Positions 29,716-56,910 of a stretch of 64,000 nucleotides of DNA are shown here, piece after piece. Each line of letters begins with the position of its first letter. Within the stretch, counting starts at the first letter, position 1. The stretch covers positions 1 to 64,000 of the forward strand of contig JACPGE010000073.1 in the NCBI GenBank assembly GCA_016182605.1, in the 5' to 3' direction. A program made the position numbers and the translations under genes. The stretch comes from Candidatus Hydrogenedentota bacterium. Lineage in GTDB: Bacteria > Hydrogenedentota > Hydrogenedentia > Hydrogenedentales > JAEUWI01. The notes beneath the pieces are model-generated. The model saw only the letters and a program-made list of their open reading frames with translations, did not search any database and was not told the DNA's origin.

Positions 29716-29728
29716 CGAGGTGAAAACA

Positions 29729-29812
29729 GCCCCCCCTGCCCCCCCGCAAGCGGGGGGGAGGAATTGGGGCGAAGAAGAACTCGGACAGGAATGTCCAAGA
29801 TCCTTGGGAAGG
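29729..29812. repeat. Stacked REP-A and REP-B
   Basis: A REP-A hairpin (29729-29758) and REP-B (29781-29810) fill the gap; the downstream ATG follows 9 nt after REP-B. Confidence 0.8.
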
Positions 29813-29820
29813 GAACGGTT

Positions 29821-30369
29821 ATGACGGATTTAGATCTCTCAGTGTACAGTGAAGATGAAGTGCGGGCGATGCGAACGGCGCTGGGCATGGCGCTGGCTGG
29901 TGTGCCGCGGGACCGCGTTGTTGAATCGGTAACGGCCCAGGGGGTTGCGGATCCGGAGGGGTTCGTGACGGCGGCTGTGGAGCATGTGTGGCAGTTGCTC
30001 GGCCTGGAGGGGATGACGCGGGAGTTTCACGTGGCTGCGCGCTGGAGCTTGTATGGTTCGGCGCGGGCGGCAGGGGAACTGAAGATCTGCCGGGAATTGC
30101 TCACGGATTTGGCGCGGCTGCAGGGGCTGTATCCGGGGCAGCGCGCGGTGACAACGCCTGGCGGGGGGAGTGTGGAGTCTGGCGGGAAGGGGCCTGGTGT
30201 GGCAGTGGCGCCGGGGAAAATTACCAGTTTGGATGAGTGGTTGAATGCGCCTGTGTCCGGGCAGGCTGGAGGGAAGAAGAAGGGTTCTTCGAGGGGCCCT
30301 TCGACGGGATCCAGGAAGAAGAGCGCAACCACGAACGGCACGAAAGTCGCGAAAGGGAAAAAGGGATGA
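29821..30369 (+). CDS. Hypothetical protein at head of packaging block
   Basis: The protein has 182 aa. It is acidic and helical in the first 110 residues (EDEVRAMRTALGMALAGVPRD, ARWSLYGSARAAGELKICRE). The tail is Gly/Ser/Lys-rich and ends in KVAKGKKG. The tail overlaps a repeat-like stretch (about 30326-30369). It lies just before the small terminase gene and may assist packaging; no family recognised. Confidence 0.5.
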   Translation: MTDLDLSVYSEDEVRAMRTALGMALAGVPRDRVVESVTAQGVADPEGFVTAAVEHVWQLLGLEGMTREFHVAARWSLYGSARAAGELKICRELLTDLARLQGLYPGQRAVTTPGGGSVESGGKGPGVAVAPGKITSLDEWLNAPVSGQAGGKKKGSSRGPSTGSRKKSATTNGTKVAKGKKG

Positions 30370-30550
30370 AAACCGGACAGGAATGTCCGGGCCCCTTGGG
30401 AAGGGATCTCTCAGTCGCGGAACTCCTTCGAGATGACAGGGAGAGGCGGCGCGGAGCGCCGGGGACGGCATTCCCAAGGGGACCTTGGGAACGAGAAAGC
30501 AGAGATCCATGGGTAAGCATGGGTATTTCTAGAAACGGACAGGAGTGATC
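30370..30550. repeat. Stacked REP-B/C, REP-D, REP-G, REP-B
   Basis: In order: a B/C hybrid (GGACAGGAATGTCCGGGCCCC, 30376-30396), REP-D (30404-30443), REP-G (30446-30497) and a partial REP-B (GGACAGGAGTGATCC, 30537-30551) whose AGGAG serves as ribosome-binding site for the next GTG. Confidence 0.8.
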
Positions 30551-30552
30551 CA

Positions 30553-31155
30553 GTGCATGAATTGACGGCGGAGGAGCGGGAGGCGATGCGTTCCGCGCTG
30601 GCGCGGCGGAACGGGGGGATTCCGTTGACGCAAGAGGATCGGCGGTGGCTGCGGAAGGCGGAGAAGCTGCACGCGCAGGCGTTGCGCATTCAGGTATTCA
30701 AGGCGGTGCCGAAGGGGGAATATGCCGATATTTCGGGGCGGCAGGTGAAGGTTTTGAACGAACAGGCGTCCCGGTATGGATTGCCGTTGGCGGGTGCGAC
30801 GGTGGACCTGACGGTATTGATTCCGCGGTTCCATGATTTTCTGGCGGAGAACCGGTATAAGTTGCGGGCGCCGGAGGAGGAGGATCCGCTGTTGGCCGGC
30901 GCGGTTAGTCCGGGGTTGGAAAAGTACCGGAACCACAAGGCCGCACGAGAGGAGATTCGGCTCCGGGAGGACCTGGCGCAGAGCATTCCCCGGGAAGACG
31001 TGAAGGCCGGGTTCGGGTTGGTGGCGCAGCGGCTGCGACGGCTGGGCGACAAGCTGGCGGATCTCTATGGAGAAGAGGCCCGCGGGGTGCTGGAGGCATG
31101 TTTGGAGGATTGCGCTGTGGCTGTCCGGGAGTTGTTGGGCGCCGATGACGAGTGA
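30553..31155 (+). CDS. Terminase small subunit (putative)
   Basis: The protein has 200 aa. The N-terminal region (TAEEREAMRSALARRNGG) may be a recognition module. GEYADISGRQVKVLNEQASRY and GLPLAGATVDLTVLIPRFHDFL resemble Nu1-type helix-turn-helix small terminases, and the C-terminal half is long helices (KYRNHKAAREEIRLREDLAQ, RLRRLGDKLADLYGEEARGVL). It binds phage DNA for packaging with TerL, encoded two genes downstream. The GTG start has AGGAG 8 nt upstream. Confidence 0.65.
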   Translation: MHELTAEEREAMRSALARRNGGIPLTQEDRRWLRKAEKLHAQALRIQVFKAVPKGEYADISGRQVKVLNEQASRYGLPLAGATVDLTVLIPRFHDFLAENRYKLRAPEEEDPLLAGAVSPGLEKYRNHKAAREEIRLREDLAQSIPREDVKAGFGLVAQRLRRLGDKLADLYGEEARGVLEACLEDCAVAVRELLGADDE

Positions 31156-31180
31156 GGCCCTACTGGCCCCCCTGGGAGGC

Positions 31181-31250
31181 CCCTCCTGACGCCCCCGCAA
31201 GCGGGGGGGGAGGAAGGAAGGAATTCACGCAAAGCCGCGAAGGCGCAAAG
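31181..31250. repeat. Stacked REP-A and REP-E
   Basis: A REP-A hairpin at about 31190-31212 is followed by REP-E (TTCACGCAAAGCCGCGAAGG, 31223-31250) before the 31280 gene. Confidence 0.75.
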
Positions 31251-31279
31251 GGAAACACACGAATGGGAAGGATGAATAG

Positions 31280-31699
31280 ATGAAGATTAATGTGGCCGAG
31301 GATTTTTCAATGGTGCCCGGGGGGCGGTATCGGGCTGATGGGCCTTGGAGCGGGGAGCAGTTCCTGGAGGAGGTATTGGTTCCGGCGTTTCAGAAGCTGG
31401 CCCGGACTGAATTGCTGGAAATTGATTTTGATGGGGTGTTCGGGTGCGCGCCGTGTTGGATATCTGAGGTGTTCTATGGGCTGGGGTTGCGGTTCCCAGA
31501 AGATGAGGTGGCTGGCCGGATTGTGATTGTCGGGGAGAACAAGGCGCTTTTTTTGGAGGATGTGCGGGAGTCGCTGCGAGAGGGTTTGGCGGCGCGGAGC
31601 GCCGGGGACTGCATTCCCACGGGGGACCGTGGGAACGAGAGGAAATTGGACTCGGACAGGAATGTCCAAGATCCTGGTGGGTTACGAACTGAAGGGTAA
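31280..31699 (+). CDS. STAS-like DUF4325-type protein with repeat-encoded tail
   Basis: The protein has 139 aa. Residues 1-95 fit the DUF4325 STAS-like layout: GGRYRADGPWSGEQFLEEVL, then LLEIDFDGVFGCAPCWISEV and FPEDEVAGRIVIVGEN. The last ~36 residues are translated REP-G and REP-B (31589-31676, giving ARSAGDCIPTGDRGNE and DSDRNVQDPG), so the original stop was lost or bypassed. Its role in a packaging block is unknown. Confidence 0.55.
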   Translation: MKINVAEDFSMVPGGRYRADGPWSGEQFLEEVLVPAFQKLARTELLEIDFDGVFGCAPCWISEVFYGLGLRFPEDEVAGRIVIVGENKALFLEDVRESLREGLAARSAGDCIPTGDRGNERKLDSDRNVQDPGGLRTEG

Positions 31700-31702
31700 T
31701 TG

Positions 31703-33835
31703 ATGGCGGTGATGGTGTGGACAGAACCTCGCGTGCGGCCGGCGCTGGAGGAGTTGCTGTGGATGCTGGGGGAGGCGCGTTCCCGGGCACGGCGGCCGCT
31801 TTCGCGGTTCATGGTGGAAGAGGTACGGCTGCCGACAGGGCCGATGGCGGGCGAACCTTACAACCTGGCCACACAGCCGTATTCGCGGTTGTTCTGCGCG
31901 GCGGTGGACTCGGGCCGGTACACGGATTTCCTGTCCACGGGCCCTACGCAGAGCGGGAAGACGTTGACGACGGCGCTGGGCCCTATGGCGTGGCACCTCT
32001 TCGAGTGGCAGGAGCCGGTCATTTTTGGGCTGCCGAATGATGATATGCGCAGGGACAAATGGGAAGACGATGTCCTCCCAATGATCGAGGCCACGCGGTA
32101 CCGGGAGCTGTTGCCGACGCGCGGCCCGGGCAGCCGCGGTGGTGATCCGGGCGCCCGGATTCGATTTTCCCACGGGGTGGTGGTCCGGTTTATGACCGGC
32201 GGCGGTGCGGACAAGTCCCGCGCGGGAAAGACGGCGCGGGTGTTGGTGGCGACGGAGGTGGAAGCGTTCGACCTGGTGAAGAGCACGAGCGCGGAGGGTA
32301 CGCAGATTGAGCAGTTGGAGGCACGGACGCATGCGTTTGGGAGCCGTGCGCGCAAGTACAAGGAGTGCACGGTGACGACGAGCACCGGCTACGTGTGGCG
32401 CAAGTACGCCGCGGGCAGTATGACGCGGCCCTGGTATCCGTGCGCGCATTGCGGCACGTGGGTGAGTTTGGACCGGGAGAATTTTCACGGGTGGCAGGAG
32501 GCGGAAACGGAAGTGGATGCGTTCTCGAACGCACGATTGGTGTGTACGGCGTGCGGCGTGCTCTGGACGGACGACGAGCGGCGTTGGAGTGTGGGGCAGA
32601 TGGCGGCGGTGCACCGGGGCCAGCGGATAGTGGAAGCGTCGGGCCCCACCGCAAGCGGGCCCCCCATTCCCCCCCCCGCAAGCGGGGGGGGATGGGAGGG
32701 GAATCTCGGACAGGAATGTCCAAGATCCTTAGGTGTGCCTGTGATCGAGGGGGATGCGCCGAAGACGTTCAGTTTTACGTTGCGGTGGAACGGGGCTGAA
32801 AATTTATTGATGGACCAGGGCCAGATCGGTGTAGCGGAGTGGCAGTCTGCGCGTGCGGAGAAGGCGGACGAGGCGGAACGGGCGATGTGCCAGTTCTACT
32901 GGGCGCGCGCGATCGACGACGACACCGAGAACAGCGTTGATCTGACGGTGCAGAGTCTGACGGAGCGCTTGGGTGATTGGGTGCGCGGTGTGTGCCCGGC
33001 GGACACGATGTGCGTGACGGCTACGCTGGACATGGGAAAACACGTGGCGCATTGGCTGGTGCTCGCGTGGCGGGAGGACGGATCGCCGCACGTGGTGGAC
33101 TACGGGACGATTACTGTGCGGTGGCGGGAGTTGGGGCTGGAGAACGCGATCACGAGCGCGTGCTGGGAATTTGCGGAGATTTGCGAGGCAGGCTGGCTTC
33201 ATGAGAATCAGAGCCGGGTGCCTGATGTGCGCTGGATCGATTCGGGTGGCGAGTGGGCTAAGCAGGTCTATGATTTTTGTAAGACAACGAACTACGCGTA
33301 CAGGCCGATGAAGGGCTTCGGGGCGAGTCAGGATTTTGAAAAGAGCTACATGCAGCCGAAGAGCACGGGGAGCACTGTGCTGCACATCGGGGAGCAGTAT
33401 CACGTGGCGTTTGTGGCAGAGACGGGCGTTCGGTTGATCGAGGTGAATGCGGATTACTGGAAGAGCTACGCATATCGCCGGCTGATGACGCCAGTGGAGA
33501 AGCCGGGTGGTCTGACGCTGTACCGGACGCTGAGCAGGGATCACAGGGCATTCGCGCTGCATTTACTGGCGGAGCGCCGTGAACTGGAGTGGGTGCCTGA
33601 GACGGCGCGATCGTTGGGCCCGCGGAAGGGCGGCTGGCGGGAGCGGTGGGTGAAGGTGAACCGGAACAATCACTGGGGAGACACGTTCTATATGGGGTGC
33701 GCGGCTGCGCATCATGGCGGGGTGCGGTTGGAGATAGATAGCGCTGAGGGTGATGGGGGACCCCGCCCCGTGGTGGCTCCGCCGCGAAGAGTGGCGGGGC
33801 GCAAGCGGCGGGGTGTGGTGATGTACAGGAAGTGA
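31703..33835 (+). CDS. Terminase large subunit (GpA-type) with in-frame repeat insertion
   Basis: The protein has 710 aa, the phage packaging ATPase/nuclease. Walker A is STGPTQSGKT (K86). GpA-type features include VLVATEVEAFD, the zinc-like CAHCG and CTACG, FSFTLRWNGAENLL, the nuclease-region TLDMGKHVAHW, and IDSGGEWAKQVYDFC. Residues about 312-347 are encoded by REP-A plus REP-B (32641-32735): PIPPPASGGGWEGN, then GQECPRSLG. The insertion lies in the linker between ATPase and nuclease halves and keeps the frame. ATG 31703 is used. Confidence 0.92.
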   Translation: MAVMVWTEPRVRPALEELLWMLGEARSRARRPLSRFMVEEVRLPTGPMAGEPYNLATQPYSRLFCAAVDSGRYTDFLSTGPTQSGKTLTTALGPMAWHLFEWQEPVIFGLPNDDMRRDKWEDDVLPMIEATRYRELLPTRGPGSRGGDPGARIRFSHGVVVRFMTGGGADKSRAGKTARVLVATEVEAFDLVKSTSAEGTQIEQLEARTHAFGSRARKYKECTVTTSTGYVWRKYAAGSMTRPWYPCAHCGTWVSLDRENFHGWQEAETEVDAFSNARLVCTACGVLWTDDERRWSVGQMAAVHRGQRIVEASGPTASGPPIPPPASGGGWEGNLGQECPRSLGVPVIEGDAPKTFSFTLRWNGAENLLMDQGQIGVAEWQSARAEKADEAERAMCQFYWARAIDDDTENSVDLTVQSLTERLGDWVRGVCPADTMCVTATLDMGKHVAHWLVLAWREDGSPHVVDYGTITVRWRELGLENAITSACWEFAEICEAGWLHENQSRVPDVRWIDSGGEWAKQVYDFCKTTNYAYRPMKGFGASQDFEKSYMQPKSTGSTVLHIGEQYHVAFVAETGVRLIEVNADYWKSYAYRRLMTPVEKPGGLTLYRTLSRDHRAFALHLLAERRELEWVPETARSLGPRKGGWRERWVKVNRNNHWGDTFYMGCAAAHHGGVRLEIDSAEGDGGPRPVVAPPRRVAGRKRRGVVMYRK
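32641..32735. repeat. REP-A plus REP-B inside the TerL gene
   Basis: CCCCCCCCGCAAGCGGGGGG lies at about 32669-32690, and TCGGACAGGAATGTCC with its AAGATCCTTAGG tail at 32705-32732. The order matches the intergenic stacks. Confidence 0.85.
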
Positions 33836-33840
33836 GGGGA

Positions 33841-33925
33841 GGCCCCTTCGGCAGGCTCAGGGACCGGCAAGGGAATAGGTCGTATAGGACGTATACCGGG
33901 CGGGATGTCCGGGCTCCTGGGGGAA
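33841..33925. repeat. REP-H and REP-C-like
   Basis: CCCCTTCGGCAGGCTCAGGG (33843-33862) is followed by GGGCGGGATGTCCGGGCTCC (33898-33917) in the gap after TerL. Confidence 0.7.
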
Positions 33926-33977
33926 TGCCCGCTGTGAATTGTTCAGGGCTTGGAGAGGCCCTGGTTACTCTTGAAGG

Positions 33978-34445
33978 ATGTCGACCATGACGGAAATAGT
34001 TTTGGAGCGGAGGATGGTGGAAGTGCCCATGGCCGTGGAGACGGAAGGGTACGTGAGTGGGCATGTGGAGGTGCAGTTGCGCACCCGTGAACAGAAGCTT
34101 GCCCTGAAGCGCGTGACGGTGGCGCTGAAGGAAAGCGGGGCGCGATTGGTGAACGGGCGTGTGGTGGATAATGGCGGCGATGCGATCCGCTGGTTGCTGG
34201 AGCAGCTGGCCGGGGTGGGCGTATCGGCGCCGGTGGTGACGTGGGCCGACGCTGCTGAAGCGGCCCCTCCTGCCTCACCGCAATCGGCCCCCCCGGGCCC
34301 CCCCTGCCCCCCCGCAAGCGGGGGGGTGCCGAGTGCGGATGGTTTTCCGCCGGTGCCCAGTGTGCAGGCGGTGTCCGTTGGTGGCCGCCGGGTGAAGGGG
34401 AAGAAAGGGAAGAAAGGTGTCGGCGCCGCCTTGGCCGCCAACTAG
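33978..34445 (+). CDS. Hypothetical protein with REP-A-encoded Pro-rich segment
   Basis: The protein has 155 aa. Residues 1-90 look folded (VEVQLRTREQKLALKRVTVALKE, DAIRWLLEQLAGVG). A Pro/Ala stretch PPGPPCPPASGGV around 108-120 comes from a REP-A copy (34285-34328). A basic tail GKKGKKGVG follows. It lies directly after TerL. Function unknown. Confidence 0.5.
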   Translation: MSTMTEIVLERRMVEVPMAVETEGYVSGHVEVQLRTREQKLALKRVTVALKESGARLVNGRVVDNGGDAIRWLLEQLAGVGVSAPVVTWADAAEAAPPASPQSAPPGPPCPPASGGVPSADGFPPVPSVQAVSVGGRRVKGKKGKKGVGAALAAN

Positions 34446-34452
34446 CCCCCTG

Positions 34453-34580
34453 CAAGCTCCCCCACTGCCCCCCCCCGCAAGCGGGGGCGCAGGGGGGGGA
34501 GGCGGTAGGAGTCTGGAGTCTGGAGGGATAGAAAGAGGGGGAGGCACGCAAAGCCGCAAAGGGGAACAAGATCCTTTGGG
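34453..34580. repeat. REP-A and REP-E between converging genes
   Basis: A long REP-A variant (34459-34500) and REP-E (CACGCAAAGCCGCAAAGG, about 34543-34562) fill the gap between the plus-strand gene and the end of the antisense cassette. Confidence 0.7.
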
Positions 34581-34582
34581 GA

Positions 34583-35050
34583 TTAATCGGGGAGTAGTGC
34601 TGCGGCGGCGATGACGCCGGCGCTGATCTCGTTTTCGGGTGTGGCGTGGATGAGCTTTTGGGCGATGCTGGGGGGTATGTAGATGCTATAGGTTTGGCCG
34701 CGTTCACCGTGTTTTGATGGCCGCCCGGTGGATCGGCCCGTGGGTCGGCCTTTGACGATCTCGGGAGGGAGCCCCCCCTGCCCCCCCGCAAGCGGGGGGG
34801 TGGGCATGGGGGCGTAGGTGGAGAATTTCCGGGCGGTGCTGTAGTAGCGGGCCTGTGGGTTCGACTGGCTGGAGACGGTTTTGGGGCAGTGCCACCAGAC
34901 GGAGCAGGCGGGCGCCACGATGCGTTCCGCGATGCGCTGGGCATCCGCGGGGTCGTGGTAGTTTTTGGTGCCTACGGCGTACCAGCGGCCCGTTTTGGGG
35001 TGTTTGGCGCGGATCGAGAACATTACCTGGTAGTGGGTATTCGGGGTCAT
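34583..35050 (-). CDS. Antisense cassette gene 5: two-part protein joined by REP-A
   Basis: The protein has 155 aa. Residues 1-78 form one module (YQVMFSIRAKHPKTGRWYAVG, DAQRIAERIV). A segment PTPPLAGGQGGLP, encoded by a REP-A copy read in reverse (34771-34801), joins it to a C-terminal part. That part (GRPSKHGERGQTYSIYIPPS, then AQKLI) looks like a ribbon-helix-helix DNA-binding protein. AGGAG precedes the ATG, which overlaps the upstream gene by 4 nt. The repeat may have fused two genes or replaced a linker. Confidence 0.6.
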   Translation of the reverse strand: MTPNTHYQVMFSIRAKHPKTGRWYAVGTKNYHDPADAQRIAERIVAPACSVWWHCPKTVSSQSNPQARYYSTARKFSTYAPMPTPPLAGGQGGLPPEIVKGRPTGRSTGRPSKHGERGQTYSIYIPPSIAQKLIHATPENEISAGVIAAAALLPD

Positions 35051-35364
35051 TGGGTGGGCTCCTGTTTCAGCCGGTGGCGACGGATTTTTACGGCGGTTTG
35101 TGAGATGCCGAGCTTTTCCGCCGCTGTGGCGTTATTGTGTTGTATTACAGTTTTATTCATGGCGGGAGACCATGTGATCTCTCGCCGGAAGGCGGGGATG
35201 CCGAGCGCCACGCGGCGGCGGCGGACAAACTCCGCAGACCTCCCTATGTCGGCTGCTATGGCCGCGTCGGGCTCTTTGCCTAACCGCTTGAGTGTGCGCT
35301 TGTCGAGGGATTCTTTTGCCGCGTCTGCGGTCATCACAGATCGGGGTGTATGCTTTGTGCGCAT
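35047..35364 (-). CDS. Antisense cassette gene 4: HTH-like protein
   Basis: The protein has 105 aa. It has two helix-turn-helix-like halves. The first is AIAADIGRSAEFVRRRRVAL (about 35-54). The second is AAEKLGISQTAVKIRRHRLK near the C-terminus. It is very basic. It is likely a DNA-binding regulator, possibly of the cassette or the surrounding late genes. GAGGG lies upstream of the ATG. It is coupled to gene 5. Confidence 0.65.
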   Translation of the reverse strand: MRTKHTPRSVMTADAAKESLDKRTLKRLGKEPDAAIAADIGRSAEFVRRRRVALGIPAFRREITWSPAMNKTVIQHNNATAAEKLGISQTAVKIRRHRLKQEPTQ

Positions 35365-35367
35365 CGT

Positions 35368-35598
35368 CTAAGCCCTCGGCTTGTACCAGTCGGGGGCCTG
35401 GTATCCGGCGCGATACTCGGCGGCGATGCGGCGGCGGGTGGCGGCGGCATGCTCGTAGGGCGCTGCCTTATATGGCCCGCCGAGCATGCCGTTGGTTCGC
35501 TCGGCAGTCTCATAGCAGGCGCGGGCGTAGCGGTCCAGAATGCGGGCTTTCGCTTCTTGTTCGGCGGCGCAGGCGTCGAGTTCTTCTTGGGTTTTCAT
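35368..35598 (-). CDS. Antisense cassette gene 3: small helical protein
   Basis: The protein has 76 aa, Ala/Glu/Arg-rich and helical (EELDACAAEQEAKARILDRY, HAAATRRRIAAEYRAG). AGGAG lies before the ATG. It ends 3 nt before gene 4. No family recognised. Confidence 0.55.
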   Translation of the reverse strand: MKTQEELDACAAEQEAKARILDRYARACYETAERTNGMLGGPYKAAPYEHAAATRRRIAAEYRAGYQAPDWYKPRA

Positions 35599-35629
35599 GG
35601 TTTTTGGCTCCTTTTTGGGGGTTAGTCTA

Positions 35630-35839
35630 TTACCAGGCTTTTCCGACGGGACTGTTCCCGTCAGTATTTAGGTAACCGATCTGTCCGTCACTTGCCCGAT
35701 ACCATTGGGCAAATATTTGATCATCAGGGTATTCTCGCGCCGCAGTGATTGCCGCCGCCCGTGCCGCATTGTCTGTTTTGCACTCGGATAATATCTCCGA
35801 TTTTCCGCCTGCCGCTACTCTCACAATCTTGATCTTCAT
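35630..35839 (-). CDS. Antisense cassette gene 2: small protein
   Basis: The protein has 69 aa. The pattern is KIKIVRVAAGGKSEILSECK, a helix, then FAQWYRASDGQIGYLN. GGAGAGAGAAG lies directly before the ATG, and a CTCCCC/GGGGAG hairpin lies just upstream (about 35850-35870). Unknown function. Confidence 0.55.
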   Translation of the reverse strand: MKIKIVRVAAGGKSEILSECKTDNAARAAAITAAREYPDDQIFAQWYRASDGQIGYLNTDGNSPVGKAW

Positions 35840-35880
35840 CTTCTCTCTCCGTGGGGAGGTTGCCCTCCCCGGTTGGGGGG

Positions 35881-36114
35881 TTAGTCCTGGACCTCGCGGG
35901 CCGCGCCTGCGGCTGCACGGACAATGCGGTTGAGGTCTGATTTTTGGGCGTACTGGAGCGCGCGGGCGCCCATCCAGGCCGGGGTAATGGTATAACTGTA
36001 GTCTCCGTAGACTATGATCTCGCCGGTTTTCCCCGCTACGGCTATCGTGCCCGCCGTGCGAGCCGCCTCGCCCTCAACTCGCGTTACCGTTATCTGGATT
36101 TTGTCGTTTTCCAT
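35881..36114 (-). CDS. Antisense cassette gene 1: small beta-rich protein
   Basis: The protein has 77 aa from ATG 36114 with GGGAGA upstream. It has beta-strand-like sequence (KIQITVTRVEGEA, GEIIVYGDYSYTIT) and then an Ala-rich helix. It is the first gene behind the strong minus-strand promoter at 36164-36192. Unknown function. Confidence 0.6.
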   Translation of the reverse strand: MENDKIQITVTRVEGEAARTAGTIAVAGKTGEIIVYGDYSYTITPAWMGARALQYAQKSDLNRIVRAAAGAAREVQD

Positions 36115-36163
36115 CGTTCTGTCTCCCTGTTGTCTCAGCGCCCCGTGCGCCATCTATGTTTGA

Positions 36164-36192
36164 ATTATACAATGTAGATTGGAGAATTGCAA
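36164..36192 (-). promoter_or_regulatory. Near-consensus promoter of the antisense cassette
   Basis: On the minus strand there is -35 TTGCAA (36187-36192), exactly 17 bp, then -10 TATAAT (36164-36169). It lies in an AT-rich island unlike the surrounding DNA. It should be active in the lysogen with host sigma-70-type polymerase and opposes late transcription. Confidence 0.75.
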
Positions 36193-36900: not shown

Positions 36901-36907
36901 GTGGCGA

Positions 36908-36942
36908 GGACCCCCCTTTATCCCCCCGCAGGCGGGGGGAGA
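36908..36942. repeat. REP-A before the portal gene
   Basis: CCCCCCTTTATCCCCCCGCAGG followed by CGGGGGGAGAG. It is a REP-A variant with GCAGGC in place of GCAAGC. Confidence 0.7.
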
Positions 36943-38627: not shown

Positions 38628-38633
38628 GGAAGA

Positions 38634-48868: not shown

Positions 48869-48876
48869 GGAACAGT

Positions 48877-50838
48877 ATGGCGGCGGAGGCGTTGGGAATT
48901 TACTTGACCGGTGCGAGCGCTACAGGGCGTTCGCAGCGGGACGCGCGTGCTTCGCTGGGTGGATTCCGGAGCGGGGTGCGCGCGGAGGTGCTGGTGTGCG
49001 ATCGGCCTCAGGCGCTGCCGGGCGTGGCGGTTCGGTATGTGGCGGGTGAGAATGGTGCGGGCATTGGCCAGTTGGCGGCGGTGGGGCTGAATACGTTGAC
49101 GTGGCAACCGCCGGGCGCGGCGCTGGCTGGCGCCGCGGTGGAGGTGCTGGCGGGTGCGCGTGCGGTGTTGCGGGGTCCTGTTGGGGAGGATGAGGCCGGT
49201 GCGTGGATCGAGGTGGAGCGTACGGGTACCGAGAACTTGGCGGGTGTCGAGTCGATCGGTATTCGGGACGTGTACAACAATGTGATTGGTGGCGCCCATA
49301 TATTCGCGGCGGCGGCGCTGGCGGGAACCGCGGAGCATGCTGCGGTGATGCTGGTGAATGAAGGGGCTGGGGATATCACGGCGCTGACGGTGTGGATTGA
49401 CGCGGCGAGCAGTGCCGGGCTGGCCTTCGCGGGTGAGGCGGTGGACGTGGATGGGGCAATACAGGTTATTGCGACCGCGACGACGGCGCCCACTGGGCTG
49501 ACGTGGCAGACGGGCGAGAGCGTGGGGACGGGGCTGGTCATCGGCACGCTGGCTGCGGGTGCGCAGGTGGGGCTGTGGGTGCGCCGGACGGTGGGGCCTG
49601 CGGCAGCGCAGGGCCCGCTGGAGACGGTGATCTTGCGGCTGGGTTTTACGCATGCGGCGGAGACGAGCGCTGCGGCGCTGCGGGGGCTGTACGCGGTACA
49701 GGGCGTGGCTCAATATGAGCTGTATGCGGAGCTTGGCCACATGCCCGATCCTGCAACGGATACCCTGCGGGCGAGCGGCGCTGGGAGTCCGCTGGCGTGG
49801 GCGACGGCGCTGGCGGCCGGGGTGTGGTATCCCGTGGTGTACCGGCGGAACTCGTGGGGCCTGCTGGGCGCGGCACACGAGCAACAGCCGATGGTTATTG
49901 ATGGTGCGGGCGATGCCTACAGCGGGCCACCGTCTATTCCGCAGGTCGTGAGTCTGACGGCGGTGAGTGGGGGCCGCGTGACGCTGAAGGCGGTTTATCA
50001 CGCGGTGCAGGATAGTGCGGCGCGGCGTGCCACGCATTGGCGGGTGTGGATGAACTTCGACGGGACGACGCCCGATCCGGACGTGGATGTGCCTTATCTG
50101 GAGACGGCCATGAACGGGCAGCGGCGGGAGGTACTGAGCCACACAACGGGTGCGCTGCTGGACGATACGGAAGTTGTGGCGGTGGTGCGGACGGTGCGCG
50201 ATCTGGGTGAGGCTACGGAGGTTTGGAGCGCGGACTCCGAGGAGGTGAGTGCGACGGCGGTGCTTCATGCGCCGATGCGCGTGCGCGCGGTGGCGCTGCG
50301 GGGCGGGCACGGTCTGACGTATCCGCCGGCGGTGGGACCCGAGGGCGCTGTGGAGTACCTGGACGAGGACGAGACCATCCGGTTTGTGTTCTGGCCTGGG
50401 CGGACCGAGTTTTGGATCGACACGGAATTGGTGTGGGTGATCGGCTACGACGCGCAGGCTGCGGAGACGTATTGGTGGTACATTCCGAGTGAGTGGGAGA
50501 TCAGCACGGGCACTGTGAGCGGCGCCGCGAGTATTGCGGGTGGGGTGGAGGTCGTGAGCCCGACCGAACTGTATGTGGTGGTGAACCAGGTTCGCCGACT
50601 GGCGATTGACGTGACGGCGATGACGATTACTGCGGCGTCGTGGAGTGTGAGCGACGATCTGCCCGTGATCGTGCCGACTGTGGGCGCGTGGGGCCGTTAC
50701 GGAGACACGCTGTTTCCTGTGTGGGACCCCGACCGTGAGGACTATCGGCCCGTGGTGCGGGTCACTGTGGCTGGCGTGGACAGTGCCGTTAATTACGATG
50801 CAACATTGGACCAGGCTGCTGTAGAAGCGCTCTGGTAG
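48877..50838 (+). CDS. Large tail protein
   Basis: The protein has 653 aa, Val/Ala/Thr-rich, beta-type throughout. It contains repeating Ig-like modules (AGVESIGIRDVYNNVIGGAH, DITALTVWIDAASSAGLAFA, TATTAPTGLTWQTGESVGTG). It is probably a distal-tail or tail-tip structural protein. It follows the tape measure by 8 nt. No specific family recognised. Confidence 0.6.
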   Translation: MAAEALGIYLTGASATGRSQRDARASLGGFRSGVRAEVLVCDRPQALPGVAVRYVAGENGAGIGQLAAVGLNTLTWQPPGAALAGAAVEVLAGARAVLRGPVGEDEAGAWIEVERTGTENLAGVESIGIRDVYNNVIGGAHIFAAAALAGTAEHAAVMLVNEGAGDITALTVWIDAASSAGLAFAGEAVDVDGAIQVIATATTAPTGLTWQTGESVGTGLVIGTLAAGAQVGLWVRRTVGPAAAQGPLETVILRLGFTHAAETSAAALRGLYAVQGVAQYELYAELGHMPDPATDTLRASGAGSPLAWATALAAGVWYPVVYRRNSWGLLGAAHEQQPMVIDGAGDAYSGPPSIPQVVSLTAVSGGRVTLKAVYHAVQDSAARRATHWRVWMNFDGTTPDPDVDVPYLETAMNGQRREVLSHTTGALLDDTEVVAVVRTVRDLGEATEVWSADSEEVSATAVLHAPMRVRAVALRGGHGLTYPPAVGPEGAVEYLDEDETIRFVFWPGRTEFWIDTELVWVIGYDAQAAETYWWYIPSEWEISTGTVSGAASIAGGVEVVSPTELYVVVNQVRRLAIDVTAMTITAASWSVSDDLPVIVPTVGAWGRYGDTLFPVWDPDREDYRPVVRVTVAGVDSAVNYDATLDQAAVEALW

Positions 50839-50851
50839 TGGAGGTGATGGC

Positions 50852-51910
50852 GTGCCGGAACTGAGTAAATACCTGAACATGTTTGCCGAGCGGCTACGGT
50901 TGCACCCGGGCGGTGCGAAGGTTGCGCCGACGAAGCTGCTGGAGGCGGTGGAGGATAACACGGAGGGTGCGGCGACGGTGGCGGCGGAGGTGGTGGCGTA
51001 TTTCCAGAATAATGCGACGAGCGCGACGGATCTGCTGATCGCGTTGTTGAGCGGGACGGCGGGTGAGGCGGGGATCGTGTTTGGGGATAAGGATGGGCAG
51101 CAGGGGAAGCTGTACTTCGACAATGTGACGGGGTCAATCATTATTAAGACGTCGACCGGGATTTTTACGATCGATTCGACGGGCTCGGTGACGATGACGA
51201 AGGCAGGGGGGAATGCCTGGCTGGCGGTGAATGAGACGGCCACGAATAACACAGTGGCGCAGACGGCAGCTATCCGCGCCACATTAACATCGGGATCTTT
51301 GGCTGATGGGTTTGGTCCGGGATTGGCGTTTCAGAATCGCACCGGCGCGGGCGGGGCGGTGCGCATGGGTATCCTGACGTTTGTGCGCGCTGGCGCGGAC
51401 AACACAGCGGATTTTGTTGTGAGGCCGGATGCGGCAGGGAGTGGCGCGGAAAAATTTCGGGTAGGTAGCGACGGCAAGATCACGATTCCGGGATACATCA
51501 TCAACGCCGGCATTCGCGCGGTGAGTGCGACAGGTGCGGCGAGTGCGCCGGAGCTTGGACATGCGAGCCACACGCCTGCGGGTACGAATGTGGCGAATGC
51601 GCCGACGATCACGCCGGGGGTGTTCCGGAATTGCCGGGTGGGGAATGGGCTGCCTGGGATCGTGGGTCAGTTTACGTGTGTGCCCACTGCGGGGAGCACG
51701 TTGACGAAGGTGGGGTTGAGCCTGCCGTTGTCGAGCAATCTGGCGGCTGCGGGGGATCTGCGGGGGCTGGCGAATTGTATTTCGCCGACGCTGGCGGGTC
51801 CGGTGAGTGTGTATGTGGATACGACGAATGACCGGATCGAGGTGGCGTTTACGAGTAATGGGACGGGGACGCATACGATTGATGTGGTGGTGCATTCGGT
51901 GGTGATTTAG
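50852..51910 (+). CDS. Tail fibre-like protein
   Basis: The protein has 352 aa, GTG start with GGAGGTG 6 nt upstream. The N-terminus may be an attachment helix (LSKYLNMFAERLRLHPGG). The middle has beta repeats of fibre type (GKLYFDNVTGSIIIKTSTGI, FTIDSTGSVTMTKAGGN). The C-terminal domain (LAGPVSVYVDTTNDRIEVAF) could be a receptor-binding head. Assignment is by composition and position. Confidence 0.6.
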   Translation: MPELSKYLNMFAERLRLHPGGAKVAPTKLLEAVEDNTEGAATVAAEVVAYFQNNATSATDLLIALLSGTAGEAGIVFGDKDGQQGKLYFDNVTGSIIIKTSTGIFTIDSTGSVTMTKAGGNAWLAVNETATNNTVAQTAAIRATLTSGSLADGFGPGLAFQNRTGAGGAVRMGILTFVRAGADNTADFVVRPDAAGSGAEKFRVGSDGKITIPGYIINAGIRAVSATGAASAPELGHASHTPAGTNVANAPTITPGVFRNCRVGNGLPGIVGQFTCVPTAGSTLTKVGLSLPLSSNLAAAGDLRGLANCISPTLAGPVSVYVDTTNDRIEVAFTSNGTGTHTIDVVVHSVVI

Positions 51911-51911
51911 G

Positions 51912-51950
51912 ACCCCCCCTGGCCCCCCCGCTTGCGGGGGGTTGGGGGGT
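51912..51950. repeat. REP-A variant with CTTG loop
   Basis: CCCCCCTGGCCCCCCCGCTTG followed by CGGGGGGTTGGGGGG. The loop is GCTTGC rather than GCAAGC, that is, the reverse-complement orientation of the core. Confidence 0.8.
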
Positions 51951-51969
51951 GGAAACGGAAAGGATTTGG

Positions 51970-52374
51970 ATGATGGGTAAGATTTTTGTGAGAGGTGAAG
52001 TTTTTGAGAGCCGGAAGGCGGCGCTTTTTTTCACTGAGGTGAAGGCGGCGGAGTATGTGCACCTTAATGAGCAGGCGCATGCGGCGCTGGCGGGGTGGGA
52101 CCCGGAGGGGGTGGAGGATGTGGTTATCGATACGGTGGAGGTGCCGCTTCGGGATGGGACGGGGATCGCGATCTCGGGGCGGGTGGATGCAGAGAAGGTG
52201 CGGGAGGCTGTGGGGGTGTGGGAGGTGCAGCAGGCGGCGGAGCGTGCTGCGCGGGATGCGCAGTTGGAGGCGCAGGCGGTGGCTATTCGGGAGCGTGAGT
52301 GGGCGGCGGCGCAGATGGTGGTGGAGGTGCAGGATTTGCGGGCGGAGGTGGAGCGGCTGAAGGGGGGGAAGTAG
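51970..52374 (+). CDS. Hypothetical tail-associated protein
   Basis: The protein has 134 aa. An N-terminal alpha/beta part (KAALFFTEVKAAEYVHLNEQ, DVVIDTVEVPLRDGTGIAIS) is followed by a C-terminal coiled coil (QQAAERAARDAQLEAQAVAI, VEVQDLRAEVERLKGG). It may be a fibre-assembly chaperone, as often follows fibre genes. ATG 51970 has AAGGA 6 nt upstream. Confidence 0.55.
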   Translation: MMGKIFVRGEVFESRKAALFFTEVKAAEYVHLNEQAHAALAGWDPEGVEDVVIDTVEVPLRDGTGIAISGRVDAEKVREAVGVWEVQQAAERAARDAQLEAQAVAIREREWAAAQMVVEVQDLRAEVERLKGGK

Positions 52375-52398
52375 GGGGAGGAGGAGAGCGAAGGCGAT

Positions 52399-52540
52399 TT
52401 CACGCAAAGGCGCAAAGGCGCAAAGGGGACCGAGGAATTTTTAACCACAGAGAGCACAGAGAGGCAGAGAGAATAACTCGGACAGGAATGTCCAAGATCC
52501 TTGGGGAGTAAATCCGGGCGGGACGCCCGGGCCCCTGCGG
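52399..52540. repeat. Stack of REP-E, F, B, C
   Basis: REP-E (52399-52427, TTCACGCAAAGGCGCAAAGG), REP-F (52438-52472), REP-B (52477-52505) and REP-C (52510-52536) lie in the 211-nt gap before the 779-aa tail gene. Confidence 0.85.
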
Positions 52541-52585
52541 GAAATTGAACCTGTAAGAGGGGCTTACAAGTTGGAGGAGGTGTAG

Positions 52586-54925
52586 ATGGCGTTTGTGGAT
52601 CTGACAGCCGGACCGGCGCAGGAGGAGTATTCTCTTGCGGGTGCGGAGGTGTATGCGCGCCGGCGCTGGTCGGACCCGTGGACGTGGCTGCCGTTTGTGC
52701 AGCCTGTGACGGTGACGGAGGGGCATGGTGGCGCCGTGGGTAGTGCCACGTTCCGCTACATCTATGGCCCGATCGCCCGGGCAGAGGATGGTCTCGACGA
52801 CATCTACAACCCCTATTATCTGAGCGGGGCGTACGTGTGCGTGTGGGTTTACGATGCCTACGGCGCGGCAGACCTTTGGTATGGCCAGTGCGAAGTGGAA
52901 CAGTCGATGCCGCGGGGCGGGGAGGTGGCCGCGGGCGAGCAACGTTTTACCGCGTATGAAGTGAGCCATATGTTCGGGCGCATCCCTGTGATTGGCAGCT
53001 ATACGTGGCTTGGGTTCATCAACCGGCCCATCGTGTTCAACCGGAGCCGGAGTGCGGGCCTGGGTCTGAATGGAAACCGGCATGGTGGTGTGCTGAGTTC
53101 GCGGCTGGGTGGTACCTGGAATGCGCTCCAGCTTATTGAATACCTCCTGTATTTCTTCATCAACAACGACGAGGACGGGAACCCGCGGCCTATTCAGTGG
53201 CAGTTGGCGGGTGACCTGAGGCAATTGGAGTACATCGAGCAGGAGTGGGACCTGCACGGGCGCTACTGCGATGCGTGCCTGGCGGAGTTGATACCGCGCA
53301 ATCGGGGGCTGGGGTGGCGCCCGGTGATCTTCGCGGACGGGAGCGCGTACATCTACGTGTTCAACAGCTTCTCTTCTGGCATTGTTGCCTGGGATGGCTA
53401 CCTGGCGCCGAATAGTCTGCAAACGCAGATCGACTACACGGGGGTACGGGCGTTTGATTCGGAGATCAGCATTAACAGGCTGGCCGAGTATGCGACCGTG
53501 GAAGTGCTTGGGGGCTATGTCTACTCGTGTTTTACGGTTTCTGTGGCGGATGGCACGCTGGTGCCGGGGTGGTCTGAGGGTGAGGAGACGGCCTACAAGG
53601 CGGGGAGCAGCAAGGAGGACGCGACTGCCGAGGACCACGACAACGCCCGGAGCGCGGAATCGCTGGACTATGTGTATCAGCGCTTCGAACTGCCCTACGA
53701 TTGGAATTTTTTCGCCGGTGATGGTCTAGGCGGTGATCAATACAATGTTGTGCCTGGCGTGTGGCCGTTGGGCGAGATCGACCCGGAGATCCTGGCGCCG
53801 ATGTATGGCGAGGATCAGAGTTTCGAACGCGAACTGCCCTTTGACGTGGTGTCGGACACGCCTGTCGGGTTCACGAAATTGCGCCCGTTTGTGTTGGTCA
53901 ACATCATTGCCGAAGAGGAAGACCCCGAGGACCCCGAAGAGACGATTTTGGTCGATCACTGGTGGTATGTGGACAAGATGCAGGCTGGGGAGCGGCCCGC
54001 GGCCAGCGTGACGCTGGGCAGTGGCGAACTGGTGATCAATGTGCGTCCGCCCATGAATCACGTTGCCGCATTGGGGAGCTTTGAGGCCGGTGCGGAGGGC
54101 ACTGCGGACAGCAACCACGAGACCAAATACGACTGGCAGAACTACCTGGCTACGGTGAACCTGCGGACGGATACCCGCCTGCGCGTTGCGGGGTATGTGC
54201 CGGGCTGGCTGCCGGGGGAACAGGGCCGGAAGAAGGTGATCGATGTGCCTGGGGCGCAGGCTTGGTATGTGGTGCCTGGGACGGTGACCCGGGCTGAGGA
54301 CGGGGAGCTTGTGCACCACGAAGGCGGGCTGGTGCGCGATGACACGATCGCACTGCAGCGGATTGCGGTAATGGCCGCGTGGTGGTACGCGCAGGCGCAG
54401 AACGTGGTGCGGTGTGACATTGGCTGGATCACGCTGGCCCACCCGGTTGGGTATATGGCCACGGGGATCTGGACCCGGGAGGGCTACACGGAACTGGGCA
54501 CGGTCATCACTCAGCGGACGTGGCAATTTGGGCAGGGCGTGGCGCCGCAGCGGACGACGATTGAGACCTCGTACGCCGAACTGGATTTCGTGGCGATGAG
54601 CGGCGATGTGGCCCGGGCACACGGGGTGCCTGCGCTGCTCGATGGAACGAGCGGTGGTAGCAGCGGCGTTGCCTCTGACTTCCAGGCGTTTCGCGAGCAG
54701 ATGACGCAACTGCCGTTGCGCCCGACCAGCGTGGGTGTGGACGGTATTGAGCGGGTGAAGGTGCTGCCTCCGTTGGTGACGACGGGTGGGGTGCGTGAGG
54801 TCTGGTGGCTGACGGCGGCGGACGGGGGCACGGGTGATGGGCAGGTCTGGGAGACGTTCCCGGGCGCGACGCGGTGGTATCCGCGGACGGGGCTGTGGAG
54901 TGATAAGAGTGGGGTGCCGGTGTAG
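52586..54925 (+). CDS. Large tail-tip/baseplate protein
   Basis: The protein has 779 aa. The first 400 residues have mixed beta structure with PWTWLPFVQPVTVTEGHGGA, FTAYEVSHMFGRIPVIGSYT and VFNRSRSAGLGLNGN, resembling the tail-hub proteins that follow distal-tail genes. A Glu/Asp-rich loop EEEDPEDPEE is near 450. The C-terminus (VDGIERVKVLPPLVTTGG) may bind fibres. GGAGGTG lies before the ATG. The family (J-like or gp27-like) could not be decided by eye. Confidence 0.6.
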   Translation: MAFVDLTAGPAQEEYSLAGAEVYARRRWSDPWTWLPFVQPVTVTEGHGGAVGSATFRYIYGPIARAEDGLDDIYNPYYLSGAYVCVWVYDAYGAADLWYGQCEVEQSMPRGGEVAAGEQRFTAYEVSHMFGRIPVIGSYTWLGFINRPIVFNRSRSAGLGLNGNRHGGVLSSRLGGTWNALQLIEYLLYFFINNDEDGNPRPIQWQLAGDLRQLEYIEQEWDLHGRYCDACLAELIPRNRGLGWRPVIFADGSAYIYVFNSFSSGIVAWDGYLAPNSLQTQIDYTGVRAFDSEISINRLAEYATVEVLGGYVYSCFTVSVADGTLVPGWSEGEETAYKAGSSKEDATAEDHDNARSAESLDYVYQRFELPYDWNFFAGDGLGGDQYNVVPGVWPLGEIDPEILAPMYGEDQSFERELPFDVVSDTPVGFTKLRPFVLVNIIAEEEDPEDPEETILVDHWWYVDKMQAGERPAASVTLGSGELVINVRPPMNHVAALGSFEAGAEGTADSNHETKYDWQNYLATVNLRTDTRLRVAGYVPGWLPGEQGRKKVIDVPGAQAWYVVPGTVTRAEDGELVHHEGGLVRDDTIALQRIAVMAAWWYAQAQNVVRCDIGWITLAHPVGYMATGIWTREGYTELGTVITQRTWQFGQGVAPQRTTIETSYAELDFVAMSGDVARAHGVPALLDGTSGGSSGVASDFQAFREQMTQLPLRPTSVGVDGIERVKVLPPLVTTGGVREVWWLTAADGGTGDGQVWETFPGATRWYPRTGLWSDKSGVPV

Positions 54926-54935
54926 GACCAGGAAG

Positions 54936-54964
54936 ACTCGGACAGGAATGTCCAAGATCCTTTG
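54936..54964. repeat. REP-B supplying the ribosome-binding site
   Basis: CTCGGACAGGAATGTCCAAG, then ATCCTTTGGAGG, with ATG 54975 nine nt later. Here a single repeat makes up almost the whole 49-nt gap. Confidence 0.85.
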
Positions 54965-54974
54965 GAGGTGATTG

Positions 54975-56375
54975 ATGGCGTGTTATGCGGGTGCGACGGT
55001 GGATATTACGCGGGTGGTGACTTGGCACGTGCTGGAATCCGTTTGGGACCGGCAGGCGGGGCAGAGCCCTATCATGCAGGTGCTGCGGGAGATTAATGCG
55101 CGTGAAGATCAGGTGGGGATTACGAAGACGGCTTGGTATTACGTGGGGGCGGATCCGGTGGATACGGACCTGGCGACGGATAGTGTTTTTGGTGGGGTGT
55201 ACGCGGGCGGGCGGCTGTGGGTGCAGGCGATGGATGCGTTGCTTGCGGTGCTGGCGCTCGGGGGAATCGTGGGGGATGATGGAATCCGCTGGACCGTGAC
55301 GGATGTGAGCACGATCCGGACTGCGCTGCTGGCTACGGTGGGTAGTAGCAGCGGGACGCGGCAGACGAATGCGCGGCTGCTGGAGAAGTGGAAGATGATT
55401 ATTGAGGCGCTGCGGGATGCGCTGGATGCGATTGAGGAGAAGGCGAGTGCGGCTTGGACGGCGAGTTATATTGATATTTACCTTGGCGTGGTGCCCGATA
55501 CGCTGGAGCGCAGCGGGTATGCGTCCAGTTGGAACAGCGGGTGCAAGGTGGAGCGGGTGGCCGTGGTTGACGGCTTCAGTGGATCGGAAGACCTGTTGTT
55601 CTACGATTTCATTGGCGGCGCGGGCGGAAATAGCTTTCCTGGCGTGAGCACGCCGCACGATAATTTTGTGGAGACATCGCGTACTAATTTTACGGGGGGG
55701 CCAGGGGGGGACACCATCTCCGAGGGGGAGTTGAGCAGTAGTGCGTTGTGTGCTGGGCATAACTATTTTTCTTGGGGGGACGACACGTGGGACGATCACG
55801 CCCCTGATGATTTCGGGTTTGCATTCGGGGAGGATGGCGTGGGTACCAATACCGCAGAATGGGAGGCATTCAACGATCCTCCGCATCAGACCGATGGGCT
55901 GGGGTGGTTTTGCTTTAATGTTTTCGATGTGGAATTTTTTTATCAAATTGGGTTTGGTTCGGATGTTCTGGCTCCGGACTCGGAAATATCCGTGGTTGTC
56001 GCGCTGGTGGTGGTCGCTGCTGATATAGATGGCGTGAGCAACGTGTGTAGCGGGACGTGGAGTAATAACCTCTATTCGGCCACCCATGATGAGAGTGATG
56101 CGATTGGCGTGCACTCCATTGGCGGGCGCACGCTGACGATGACCGATGCGGGGTTGAGTAATGAGGACCCCGAAGGCACTTATTTTGCTCCCGATGTGGG
56201 CAACTTCTCCGCCGCGGCGGCGCGTGCGGTGCTGACGGTGAATGGGGATGCGGCGTCGCTGATCACGTGGACGGATGGGGTGCTTGCCGGGGGGAATTTT
56301 GGGAGCGGCGCGGGGACGCGTATCCGTCTGGCGACGTGTGTGGACGCCTTGAACAGGCATCATCTGGACGCATAG
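54975..56375 (+). CDS. Tail-associated structural protein
   Basis: The protein has 466 aa. The N-terminal ~160 residues are helical (LRDALDAIEEKASAAWTASY). The C-terminal ~290 are Gly/Asp-rich beta sequence (FIGGAGGNSFPGVSTPHDN, FGFAFGEDGVGTNTAEWEAF, GDAASLITWTDGVLAGGNFG) that could be a receptor-binding or adhesin-like domain. It lies just before the lysis block. No family recognised. Confidence 0.55.
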   Translation: MACYAGATVDITRVVTWHVLESVWDRQAGQSPIMQVLREINAREDQVGITKTAWYYVGADPVDTDLATDSVFGGVYAGGRLWVQAMDALLAVLALGGIVGDDGIRWTVTDVSTIRTALLATVGSSSGTRQTNARLLEKWKMIIEALRDALDAIEEKASAAWTASYIDIYLGVVPDTLERSGYASSWNSGCKVERVAVVDGFSGSEDLLFYDFIGGAGGNSFPGVSTPHDNFVETSRTNFTGGPGGDTISEGELSSSALCAGHNYFSWGDDTWDDHAPDDFGFAFGEDGVGTNTAEWEAFNDPPHQTDGLGWFCFNVFDVEFFYQIGFGSDVLAPDSEISVVVALVVVAADIDGVSNVCSGTWSNNLYSATHDESDAIGVHSIGGRTLTMTDAGLSNEDPEGTYFAPDVGNFSAAAARAVLTVNGDAASLITWTDGVLAGGNFGSGAGTRIRLATCVDALNRHHLDA

Positions 56376-56387
56376 AACGGAGGCTGT

Positions 56388-56765
56388 ATGGCCGAGCATG
56401 GCGCGGAGGGATTTTGGACGCAGGTGGGGCTGGCGGCGGGTGCTGTGGGTGCGGGGGTTATCGCTGTGGCGCGGGCGATGATGCTGCGGGAGCGGAAGGC
56501 TGGGCATGCGGAGGGGAGTGTGGAGCGGCGGGAGACGGATCAGACGCTGGGGGTGAAGCTGGCTGCGTTTGAATTGCGGCTGGCGGCGATGGAGAAAAAT
56601 ATTACGTCGCTTTTCGAACGATTCGAGGAGTTGCTGGAGCGGGTGGCGTTTGGGGAGGGGGTGCGATCTGCGCATGAGGAGCGGCCACATCGGCAGGACG
56701 CGCATCGGGCGGACCCGCCCTGGCAACCGCGCAAGCGGGGGGGTGGGGATGAGGAGCGGTTTTGA
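56388..56765 (+). CDS. Small membrane protein with coiled coil (possible holin)
   Basis: The protein has 125 aa. One N-terminal membrane helix (about 10-33, WTQVGLAAGAVGAGVIAVAR) is followed by a coiled coil (LAAMEKNITSLFERFEELLE). The C-terminal DPPWQPRKRGGG is encoded by a REP-A variant (56714-56746). This hydrophobic-helix-plus-coil layout upstream of lysozyme fits a holin or spanin-like component. GGAGG lies before the ATG. Confidence 0.55.
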   Translation: MAEHGAEGFWTQVGLAAGAVGAGVIAVARAMMLRERKAGHAEGSVERRETDQTLGVKLAAFELRLAAMEKNITSLFERFEELLERVAFGEGVRSAHEERPHRQDAHRADPPWQPRKRGGGDEERF

Positions 56766-56766
56766 T

Positions 56767-56888
56767 GCCCTTCGGCAGGCTCAGGGACCGGGCGGGGAAT
56801 GGACGAGATGGACGGAATGGACAGCCGGGCGGGACGCCCGGGCCCCTGTGTGGGAAACTCGGACAGGAATGTCCAAGATCCTGGGTTG
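56767..56888. repeat. Stack of REP-H, ATGGAC repeat, REP-C, REP-B
   Basis: REP-H (56767-56790), direct repeats ATGGACGAGATGGACGG and AATGGACAG (56798-56822), REP-C (56823-56847) and REP-B (56857-56883) precede the lysozyme gene. Confidence 0.85.
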
Positions 56889-56910
56889 GCCCAGGGAATG
56901 GAGGTGAGTG

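What the first reader, a model, noticed from the sequence alone, without database searches (positions are those of the whole stretch)
29716..56910. Late operon of the prophage is paved with stacked short repeat families
At least nine repeat families (REP-A to REP-I) occur in nearly every late-operon gap, stacked in combinations of two to five (e.g. 47024-47202: A-F-C-B/C-D; 42836-42985: I-F-C-B; 52399-52540: E-F-B-C). REP-A alone appears about 15 times, REP-B about nine. The order is not random: A or I tends to lead, and B, C or D sits next to the following start codon. REP-C-like (561), REP-D-like (8553) and REP-H-like (about 61386) copies occur in host DNA too. A phage genome normally cannot afford such filler, so either a host repeat-spreading activity targets intergenic gaps of resident prophages, or the repeats have been recruited as expression elements.
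Basis: seen in the sequence. Interest (0 to 1): 0.85.

Follow-up and report, generated by a model that had tools for sequence, protein, structure and literature searches.

The report
Prophage late genes studded with host repeats
A virus integrated in a Hydrogenedentota bacterium carries, in almost every gap between its virion genes and in frame inside several of them, dozens of short repeats that belong to bacteria, several of them from bacteria other than its present host, so the repeats may be a readable record of past hosts in a place where such repeats are normally missing.

Summary
The late operon (29716-56910) of an intact-looking tRNA-Ser prophage (att 11730/59345) holds at least 47 copies of eight repeat families, 17.3 per 10 kb, against 0.43 in 464 kb of host DNA and about 0.2 copies in shuffled sequence. 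Twenty of 22 gaps of 30 bp or more carry them.

B is a genuine RAYT-linked REP of this host. A (15 of 17 genome copies are in the prophage), F and the prophage's form of D are nearly or wholly absent from the rest of this genome. A (55 copies) and F (21) are dispersed in a species of another genus of the same family. About 55 related phages have repeat-free late operons; one (L066) and, weakly, another (L064) carry different families. Terminase and protease carry repeat-coded in-frame segments that relatives lack.

Best reading: mobile REP/MITE-like half-elements collected over time in more than one host, or in one unsampled host, kept where harmless: after stop codons, in termini and linkers. 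A leads every stack, is diverged and foreign; B is identical in seven places and native. How they insert, and why so densely, is not shown.

The parts
11730..59362 (.). Prophage, bounded by an 18-bp direct repeat (3' end of tRNA-Ser at 11730-11747; second copy 59345-59362)
   Evidence: integrase 11883-13022 (-) PF00589
29716..56910 (+). Late operon region with the repeat stacks (47 pattern-defined copies, 17.3 per 10 kb)
   Evidence: terminase, portal, protease, MCP identified
29728..29808 (+). Gap stack A-B
30371..30499 (+). Gap stack B/C-D-G; its B/C-D part (30363-30442) is 94% identical over 80 nt to 47124-47203
31179..31255 (+). Gap stack A-E
31585..31676 (+). G-B forming the 3' end of the coding frame 31280-31699, beyond its DUF4325 domain
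32638..32730 (+). A-like, A and B in frame inside TerL, between ATPase and nuclease domains
33844..33921 (+). Gap stack H-J-C
34296..34326 (+). A in frame near the C-terminus of gene 33987-34445
34459..34571 (+). Convergent-gap stack A-K-E
34770..34800 (+). A in + orientation inside the minus-strand gene 34583-35050
36235..36281 (+). D (variant loop) in the divergent gap
36910..36940 (+). Gap copy of A
38632..38674 (+). Gap copy of I (right arm truncated)
39489..39561 (+). K-D in frame in the head protease, absent from the relatives L118 and L114
40154..40226 (+). Gap stack A-F
40944..41013 (+). Gap stack D-C upstream of the major capsid gene
42053..42075 (+). Gap copy of H
42357..42387 (+). 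A in frame inside gene 42159-42467
42834..42981 (+). Gap stack I-F-C-B
43494..43524 (+). Gap copy of A
44091..44195 (+). Gap stack D-J-C
45164..45226 (+). Gap stack A-C
45516..45545 (+). A in frame inside gene 45276-46028
47023..47203 (+). Gap stack A-F-C-B/C-D
51912..51952 (+). A-like symmetric hybrid (left arm +, loop and right arm -), resembling a collapsed REPIN doublet
   Evidence: sequence; interpretation by inference
52396..52540 (+). Gap stack E-F-B-C
54936..54964 (+). Gap copy of B directly before the ribosome-binding region of the next gene
56714..56743 (+). Degenerate A at the C-terminus of gene 56388-56765
56766..56883 (+). Gap stack H-J-C-B before the endolysin gene
13115..13167 (+). 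G in + orientation in the gap between the minus-strand integrase and its minus-strand neighbour
16287..16304 (+). Early-region A
21830..21868 (+). Early-region I
25424..25456 (+). Early-region F

Best explanation
The stacks are host-type REP/MITE-like short mobile repeats (mostly half-elements) that entered the phage genome one after another while its lineage lived in hosts where each family was active. They survive where an insertion is tolerated: right after stop codons, in protein termini and in interdomain linkers. The mixture of families fits more than one host genus, or one unsampled host carrying all of them. A, which leads every stack, is diverged and is foreign to the present host, looks like an old layer; B, identical in seven places and native to this host, looks like a recent one. 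Shown: the copies, their density, the foreign and native distributions, relatives without repeats, and the in-frame insertions. Inferred: insertion by a single-strand (Y1/RAYT-type) mechanism, supported only by B lying next to RAYT genes; the order of arrival; passage through more than one host.
For: Density 17.3 per 10 kb late, 2.2 early, 0.43 host. A: 15 of 17 genome copies in the prophage, 55 in G034, another genus of the family, mostly as convergent pairs. F: 5 of 11 genome copies in the prophage and 5 at one other locus; 62, 30, 21 and 21 in G035, G037, G034, G036. D: all 6 prophage copies have a 34-35-nt form, all 27 other host copies a 26-27-nt form. B: 27 exact host copies outside the prophage, next to Y1_Tnp genes in two genera (237-aa proteins, 68% identical). 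Seven B copies are identical over 24 nt with unrelated flanks; A averages 82%. A first in 6 of 6 stacks, p = 0.004. TerL: about 33 repeat-coded residues absent from L067, L141 and L150; protease segment absent from L118 and L114. About 55 relatives of 7 kb or more without dispersed repeats; L066 with other families. First unit a median of 7 nt after the stop codon.
Against: No sampled genome contains all families, and the prophage form of D was found nowhere else, so the donors are partly hypothetical. No Y1 transposase gene lies within 2 kb of the listed A copies in G034, and E and F are not palindromes, so one RAYT mechanism cannot cover all families. Even the richest hosts seen are far sparser than the phage, so the enrichment needs a further cause (preferred target, many replicating copies, or selection). 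A shared 80-nt B/C-D segment shows that some spread happened inside the phage.
Confidence: 0.58

Rival explanations
1. Recruited expression elements: hairpins between cistrons stabilise, process or tune the late mRNA, and selection retained or multiplied them.
For: Enriched in the late operon, about 8 times denser than the early region; first unit a median of 7 nt after the stop codon; several families form hairpins; uniform orientation. Cluster K mycobacteriophages have start-associated repeats in mostly one orientation (PMC3203893).
Against: About 55 relatives lack such repeats. In-gene copies serve no intercistronic role. The two copies in minus-transcribed stretches still face +. A 213-nt stack folds no better than shuffles (z = -1.2).
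Confidence: 0.2
2. Single unsampled donor: the phage recently arrived from one Hydrogenedentota species that has all these families; no series of hosts is needed. (This overlaps with the best explanation, which leaves the number of hosts open.)
For: Prophage forms of C and D differ from host forms. Genomes with several families exist: G034 has A and F, G000 has B, D, G and I. B is shared by G000 and G036.
Against: No such genome among the 68 searched of the phylum; A and F occur in genus g3 where the D core was not found, and D in genus g1 where A and F are nearly absent. The different divergence of A and B suggests different ages.
Confidence: 0.3
3. Amplification inside the phage: a few captured repeats were copied from gap to gap by phage recombination.
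For: An 80-nt B/C-D segment in two gaps at 94% identity; J-C recurs three times; phage-specific D form; uniform orientation.
Against: Seven B copies share only the element, with unrelated flanks. Most families occur in varied combinations.
Confidence: 0.2
4. Assembly or binning artefact: contig C129 comes from another species.
For: A, F and the prophage form of D are nearly absent from the other 129 contigs.
Against: Tetranucleotide classification puts the left flank with G000 (P 0.95-1.00); B identical to the copies on other G000 contigs; the flanks themselves hold almost none of the repeats. The right flank is compositionally atypical and uninformative.
Confidence: 0.05

Closest known systems
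REP/REPIN elements with RAYT (TnpA-REP, Y1 HUH) transposases
   Same: Short palindromic, mostly intergenic, many copies; in host genomes A and B form inverted pairs or arrays and B flanks Y1_Tnp genes in two genera.
   Different: In the prophage only single half-elements occur, several families are stacked, they sit in a phage and inside genes, and density is far above the host. In the P. fluorescens group mobile elements fall in REP deserts (PMC3390384), the opposite of this. Singlets were read as immobile remnants of REPINs (PMC3116915).
Start-associated sequences (SAS/ESAS) of Cluster K mycobacteriophages
   Same: Repeats in front of phage genes, mostly in one orientation; ESAS are inverted repeats (PMC3203893).
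   Different: SAS are phage-specific, typically 3-7 bp from start codons, associated with non-structural genes and conserved at the same genes across the cluster. Here there are eight or more bacterial families, at structural genes, near stop codons, absent from relatives.
Rickettsia palindromic elements (from own knowledge)
   Same: Palindromic repeats inserted in frame into coding genes.
   Different: Sequence relationship not tested; there in a bacterial chromosome, here in a phage.
PeSL mobile cassettes of T4-type phages (from own knowledge)
   Same: Stem-loop elements in phage intergenic gaps.
   Different: PeSLs carry early promoters and are phage-borne; no promoter function was tested here.

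Membership tests
REP/RAYT | Short palindromic repeat, many intergenic copies in a bacterial genome | tested here: met
   A in G034, B in G000 and G036; not for E and F, which are not palindromic
REP/RAYT | The same REP flanks a Y1/RAYT transposase gene (family B) | tested here: met
   G000 C59 RAYT ends at 894 with B at 911; G036 C452 RAYT 4223-4936 with B at 4112 and 4942
REP/RAYT | The same REP flanks a Y1/RAYT transposase gene (family A) | tested here: not met
   No Y1_Tnp hit within 2 kb of the listed A copies in G034
REP/RAYT | Inverted doublets (REPINs) as the usual form | tested here: not met
   Met in host genomes but all prophage copies are singlets; one A (51912-51952) looks like a collapsed doublet
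REP/RAYT | Mobilisation by the transposase | not testable with these tools
   Needs a transposition assay
SAS/ESAS | Conserved at the same genes in related phages | tested here: not met
   About 55 related late operons without such repeats; caveat: the relatives are distant (MCP about 50% identity)
SAS/ESAS | Within a few bp of start codons | tested here: not met
   Last unit to start codon 10-83 nt, median 33; stop codon to first unit median 7
Rickettsia palindromic elements | In-frame insertion into coding genes | tested here: met
   TerL against three homologues and protease against two
Rickettsia palindromic elements | Sequence relationship to RPE families | not tested
   No comparison with RPE sequences was run

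The most novel reading that the evidence does not exclude
The late operon of this phage is a layered archive of its former hosts. Each family was deposited in a different host, successive insertions stacked between stop codon and ribosome-binding site, so the sequence of repeats reads as a host history, with strand-specific insertion into replicating phage DNA fixing the orientation.
Probability: 0.27. Interest if true: 0.85.

Novelty: new variant of a known kind. Interest (0 to 1): 0.62.

Why it matters
REP-type repeats are thought to move inside one bacterial genome and to be missing from prophages and other mobile DNA. Here a temperate phage with intact-looking genes carries several families at about 40 times the density of its host, including families found in other bacterial genera. 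If confirmed, phages could carry such repeats between species, which would help to explain their scattered distribution, and the repeats could serve as host-history markers for uncultured phages. The in-frame copies in the terminase and protease would also show natural tolerance sites in essential virion genes.

Tried and rejected
Resident-host origin for all families: rejected by genome-wide counts. Chance: rejected. Misbinned contig: unlikely. Other prophages in the genome as comparison: none; a portal search in ten genomes of the phylum rang only here, and no TerL homologue was found in 68 genomes. Exact A, B and prophage-D patterns in viral contigs: none; F in one and H in two contigs, single copies. 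Prophage-D in 84,980 species genomes: none. Host orientation as a test: D mixed (3 same, 4 opposite in codirectional gaps), F mostly with transcription (8 against 1), so orientation does not separate the hypotheses cleanly (rough gene calls). A GTAG target at stop codons was considered; TAG stops are common in the repeat-bearing genes, but flanking patterns gave no clear motif. One search scored only 11 candidates per genome and is not used for absence claims. E and H were not counted genome-wide outside the samples.
Full report
Setting. The window is G000:C129:1-64000, from a 6.76 Mb genome in 130 contigs of the phylum Hydrogenedentota; the phylum is inferred from a related genome in the same search whose contig is also held under its public name. 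An 18-bp direct repeat at the 3' end of tRNA-Ser (11730) and at 59345, with an integrase next to it, bounds a prophage of about 47.6 kb. Terminase, portal, S49 head protease, major capsid protein and endolysin are recognisable, and the identified late genes are open frames (a few of my hand-typed start coordinates there were out of frame, but one search lists open frames over most of those genes).

Observation. The stacks exist as described. A scan with family patterns gives 47 copies in 27.2 kb of late operon, 4 in 18 kb of early region, 20 in 464 kb of host stretches (some chosen because they contained a copy, so the host figure is if anything too high) and 0-1 per shuffled operon. Twenty of 22 gaps carry at least one unit and units fill about 47% of gap DNA. 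The first unit begins a median of 7 nt after the stop codon, units are a median of 4.5 nt apart, and 10-83 nt remain before the next start codon. A is first in 6 of 6 multi-unit gaps that contain it (p = 0.004). Every orientable late copy faces the + strand, apart from the symmetric A hybrid at 51912-51952; that includes an A inside the minus-strand gene 34583-35050 and, in the early region, a G in the minus-strand integrase operon.

Insertions inside genes. Twelve units are in genes, none breaking the frame. In TerL an A-like piece, an A and a B encode about 33 residues between the ATPase and nuclease domains; homologues L067, L141 and L150 (36-37% identity) pass from one domain to the other without them. 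In the protease a K-D unit encodes a stretch that L118 and L114 lack. These are the clearest repeat-free versions of occupied sites. Kept reading frames suggest that selection still acts on the genes, so this is not simply decay of a dead prophage (inference).

Where the families live. A: 17 near-exact copies in the genome, 15 in the prophage and two on C70, but 55 exact copies in G034, a different genus of the same family, mostly in convergent pairs, and a few copies in a Hydrogenedentota MAG and a Poribacteria MAG. F: 11 in the genome, five in the prophage, five at one locus of C13, one on C128; 62, 30, 21 and 21 copies in four genomes of genus g3. D: 27 host copies in a 26-27-nt form, six prophage copies in a 34-35-nt form; the prophage form is unique in 68 genomes of the phylum and its core was not found in 84,980 species genomes or in IMG/VR. 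B: about 40 host copies in arrays, 8 exact in G036 and single copies in three relatives. In both G000 (C59) and G036 (C452) B lies directly beside a 237-aa Y1_Tnp protein, 68% identical between the two, the layout of a RAYT with its REP. G and I also occur in the host, I there as a longer palindrome of which the prophage has half.

Relatives. A profile of the major capsid protein found 80 related contigs. Of the roughly 57 of 7 kb or more, exact 14-mers repeated at three or more separate places cover 31.6 bp/kb here, 29.7 in L066, 2.3 in L101 and zero in the rest. L066 has different families, in several cases beginning right after stop codons; L064 has an imperfect 36-nt family on both sides of its capsid gene. 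So repeat-free gaps are the usual state, and the filled state has arisen at least twice with different repeats. The relatives share only about 50% capsid identity, so close comparison is not available.

Mechanism. Shown: dense, mixed, mostly single elements; some native and some foreign families; sharp insertion of B (seven identical 24-mers with unrelated flanks); in-frame insertions absent from relatives. Inferred: element-by-element insertion during residence in successive hosts, with loss of harmful ones. The layering (A foreign, diverged at 82% mean identity, first; B native, identical, usually later) fits a time order but rests on few stacks. Why the late operon is so much denser than any host is open: many replicating single-stranded copies, a target preference near stop codons, and selection are all possible. 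That only singlets occur may reflect instability of long palindromes (inference); the A at 51912-51952 looks like a collapsed doublet.

Known ground. REP, REPIN and RAYT are well described (PMC3116915, PMC3390384, read), and in the Pseudomonas fluorescens group mobile elements are REP-poor. SAS/ESAS in Cluster K mycobacteriophages (PMC3203893) resemble this superficially but are conserved, phage-specific and placed at start codons. In the searches of the paper library that bear on repeats in phages I saw no report of multi-family host repeats paving a phage late operon; I did not search exhaustively.

Verdict. Observation confirmed; the resident-host explanation is only partly right; most likely host-derived mobile half-elements gathered across hosts or in an unsampled host. 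New variant of a known kind.

Noticed in passing
19509-20582: A second integrase-like protein (phrog_1, E = 1.3e-17) in the early region, besides the tRNA-proximal integrase at 11883-13022.
   Followed up: no
18823-19509, 21164-22876, 28407-29390: Three DNA methyltransferase-like genes in the prophage.
   Followed up: no
34583-36153: A small block of minus-strand genes between terminase and portal, against the direction of the late operon.
   Followed up: partly
42302-42437: A 43-nt duplication (86% identical) flanks the A copy inside gene 42159-42467.
   Followed up: no
L066 (IMGVR_UViG_3300048930_000654): A distant relative whose late gaps carry other repeats (GGGATTGGGGATNAGGG tracts, GCGCGGCTTCGCCGCG hairpins, GCACGGAGGCACGAAGG); host unknown.
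   Followed up: partly
L002 to L012 (G000 contigs C43, C12, C36, C59, C77, C91, C103, C108, C122): Host B copies mostly sit in arrays embedded in a larger repeated block with conserved flanks.
   Followed up: no
59615-64000: Large multi-domain cadherin/Big_9 protein with a long GEGEGE-type tract, compositionally atypical for the genome.
   Followed up: no
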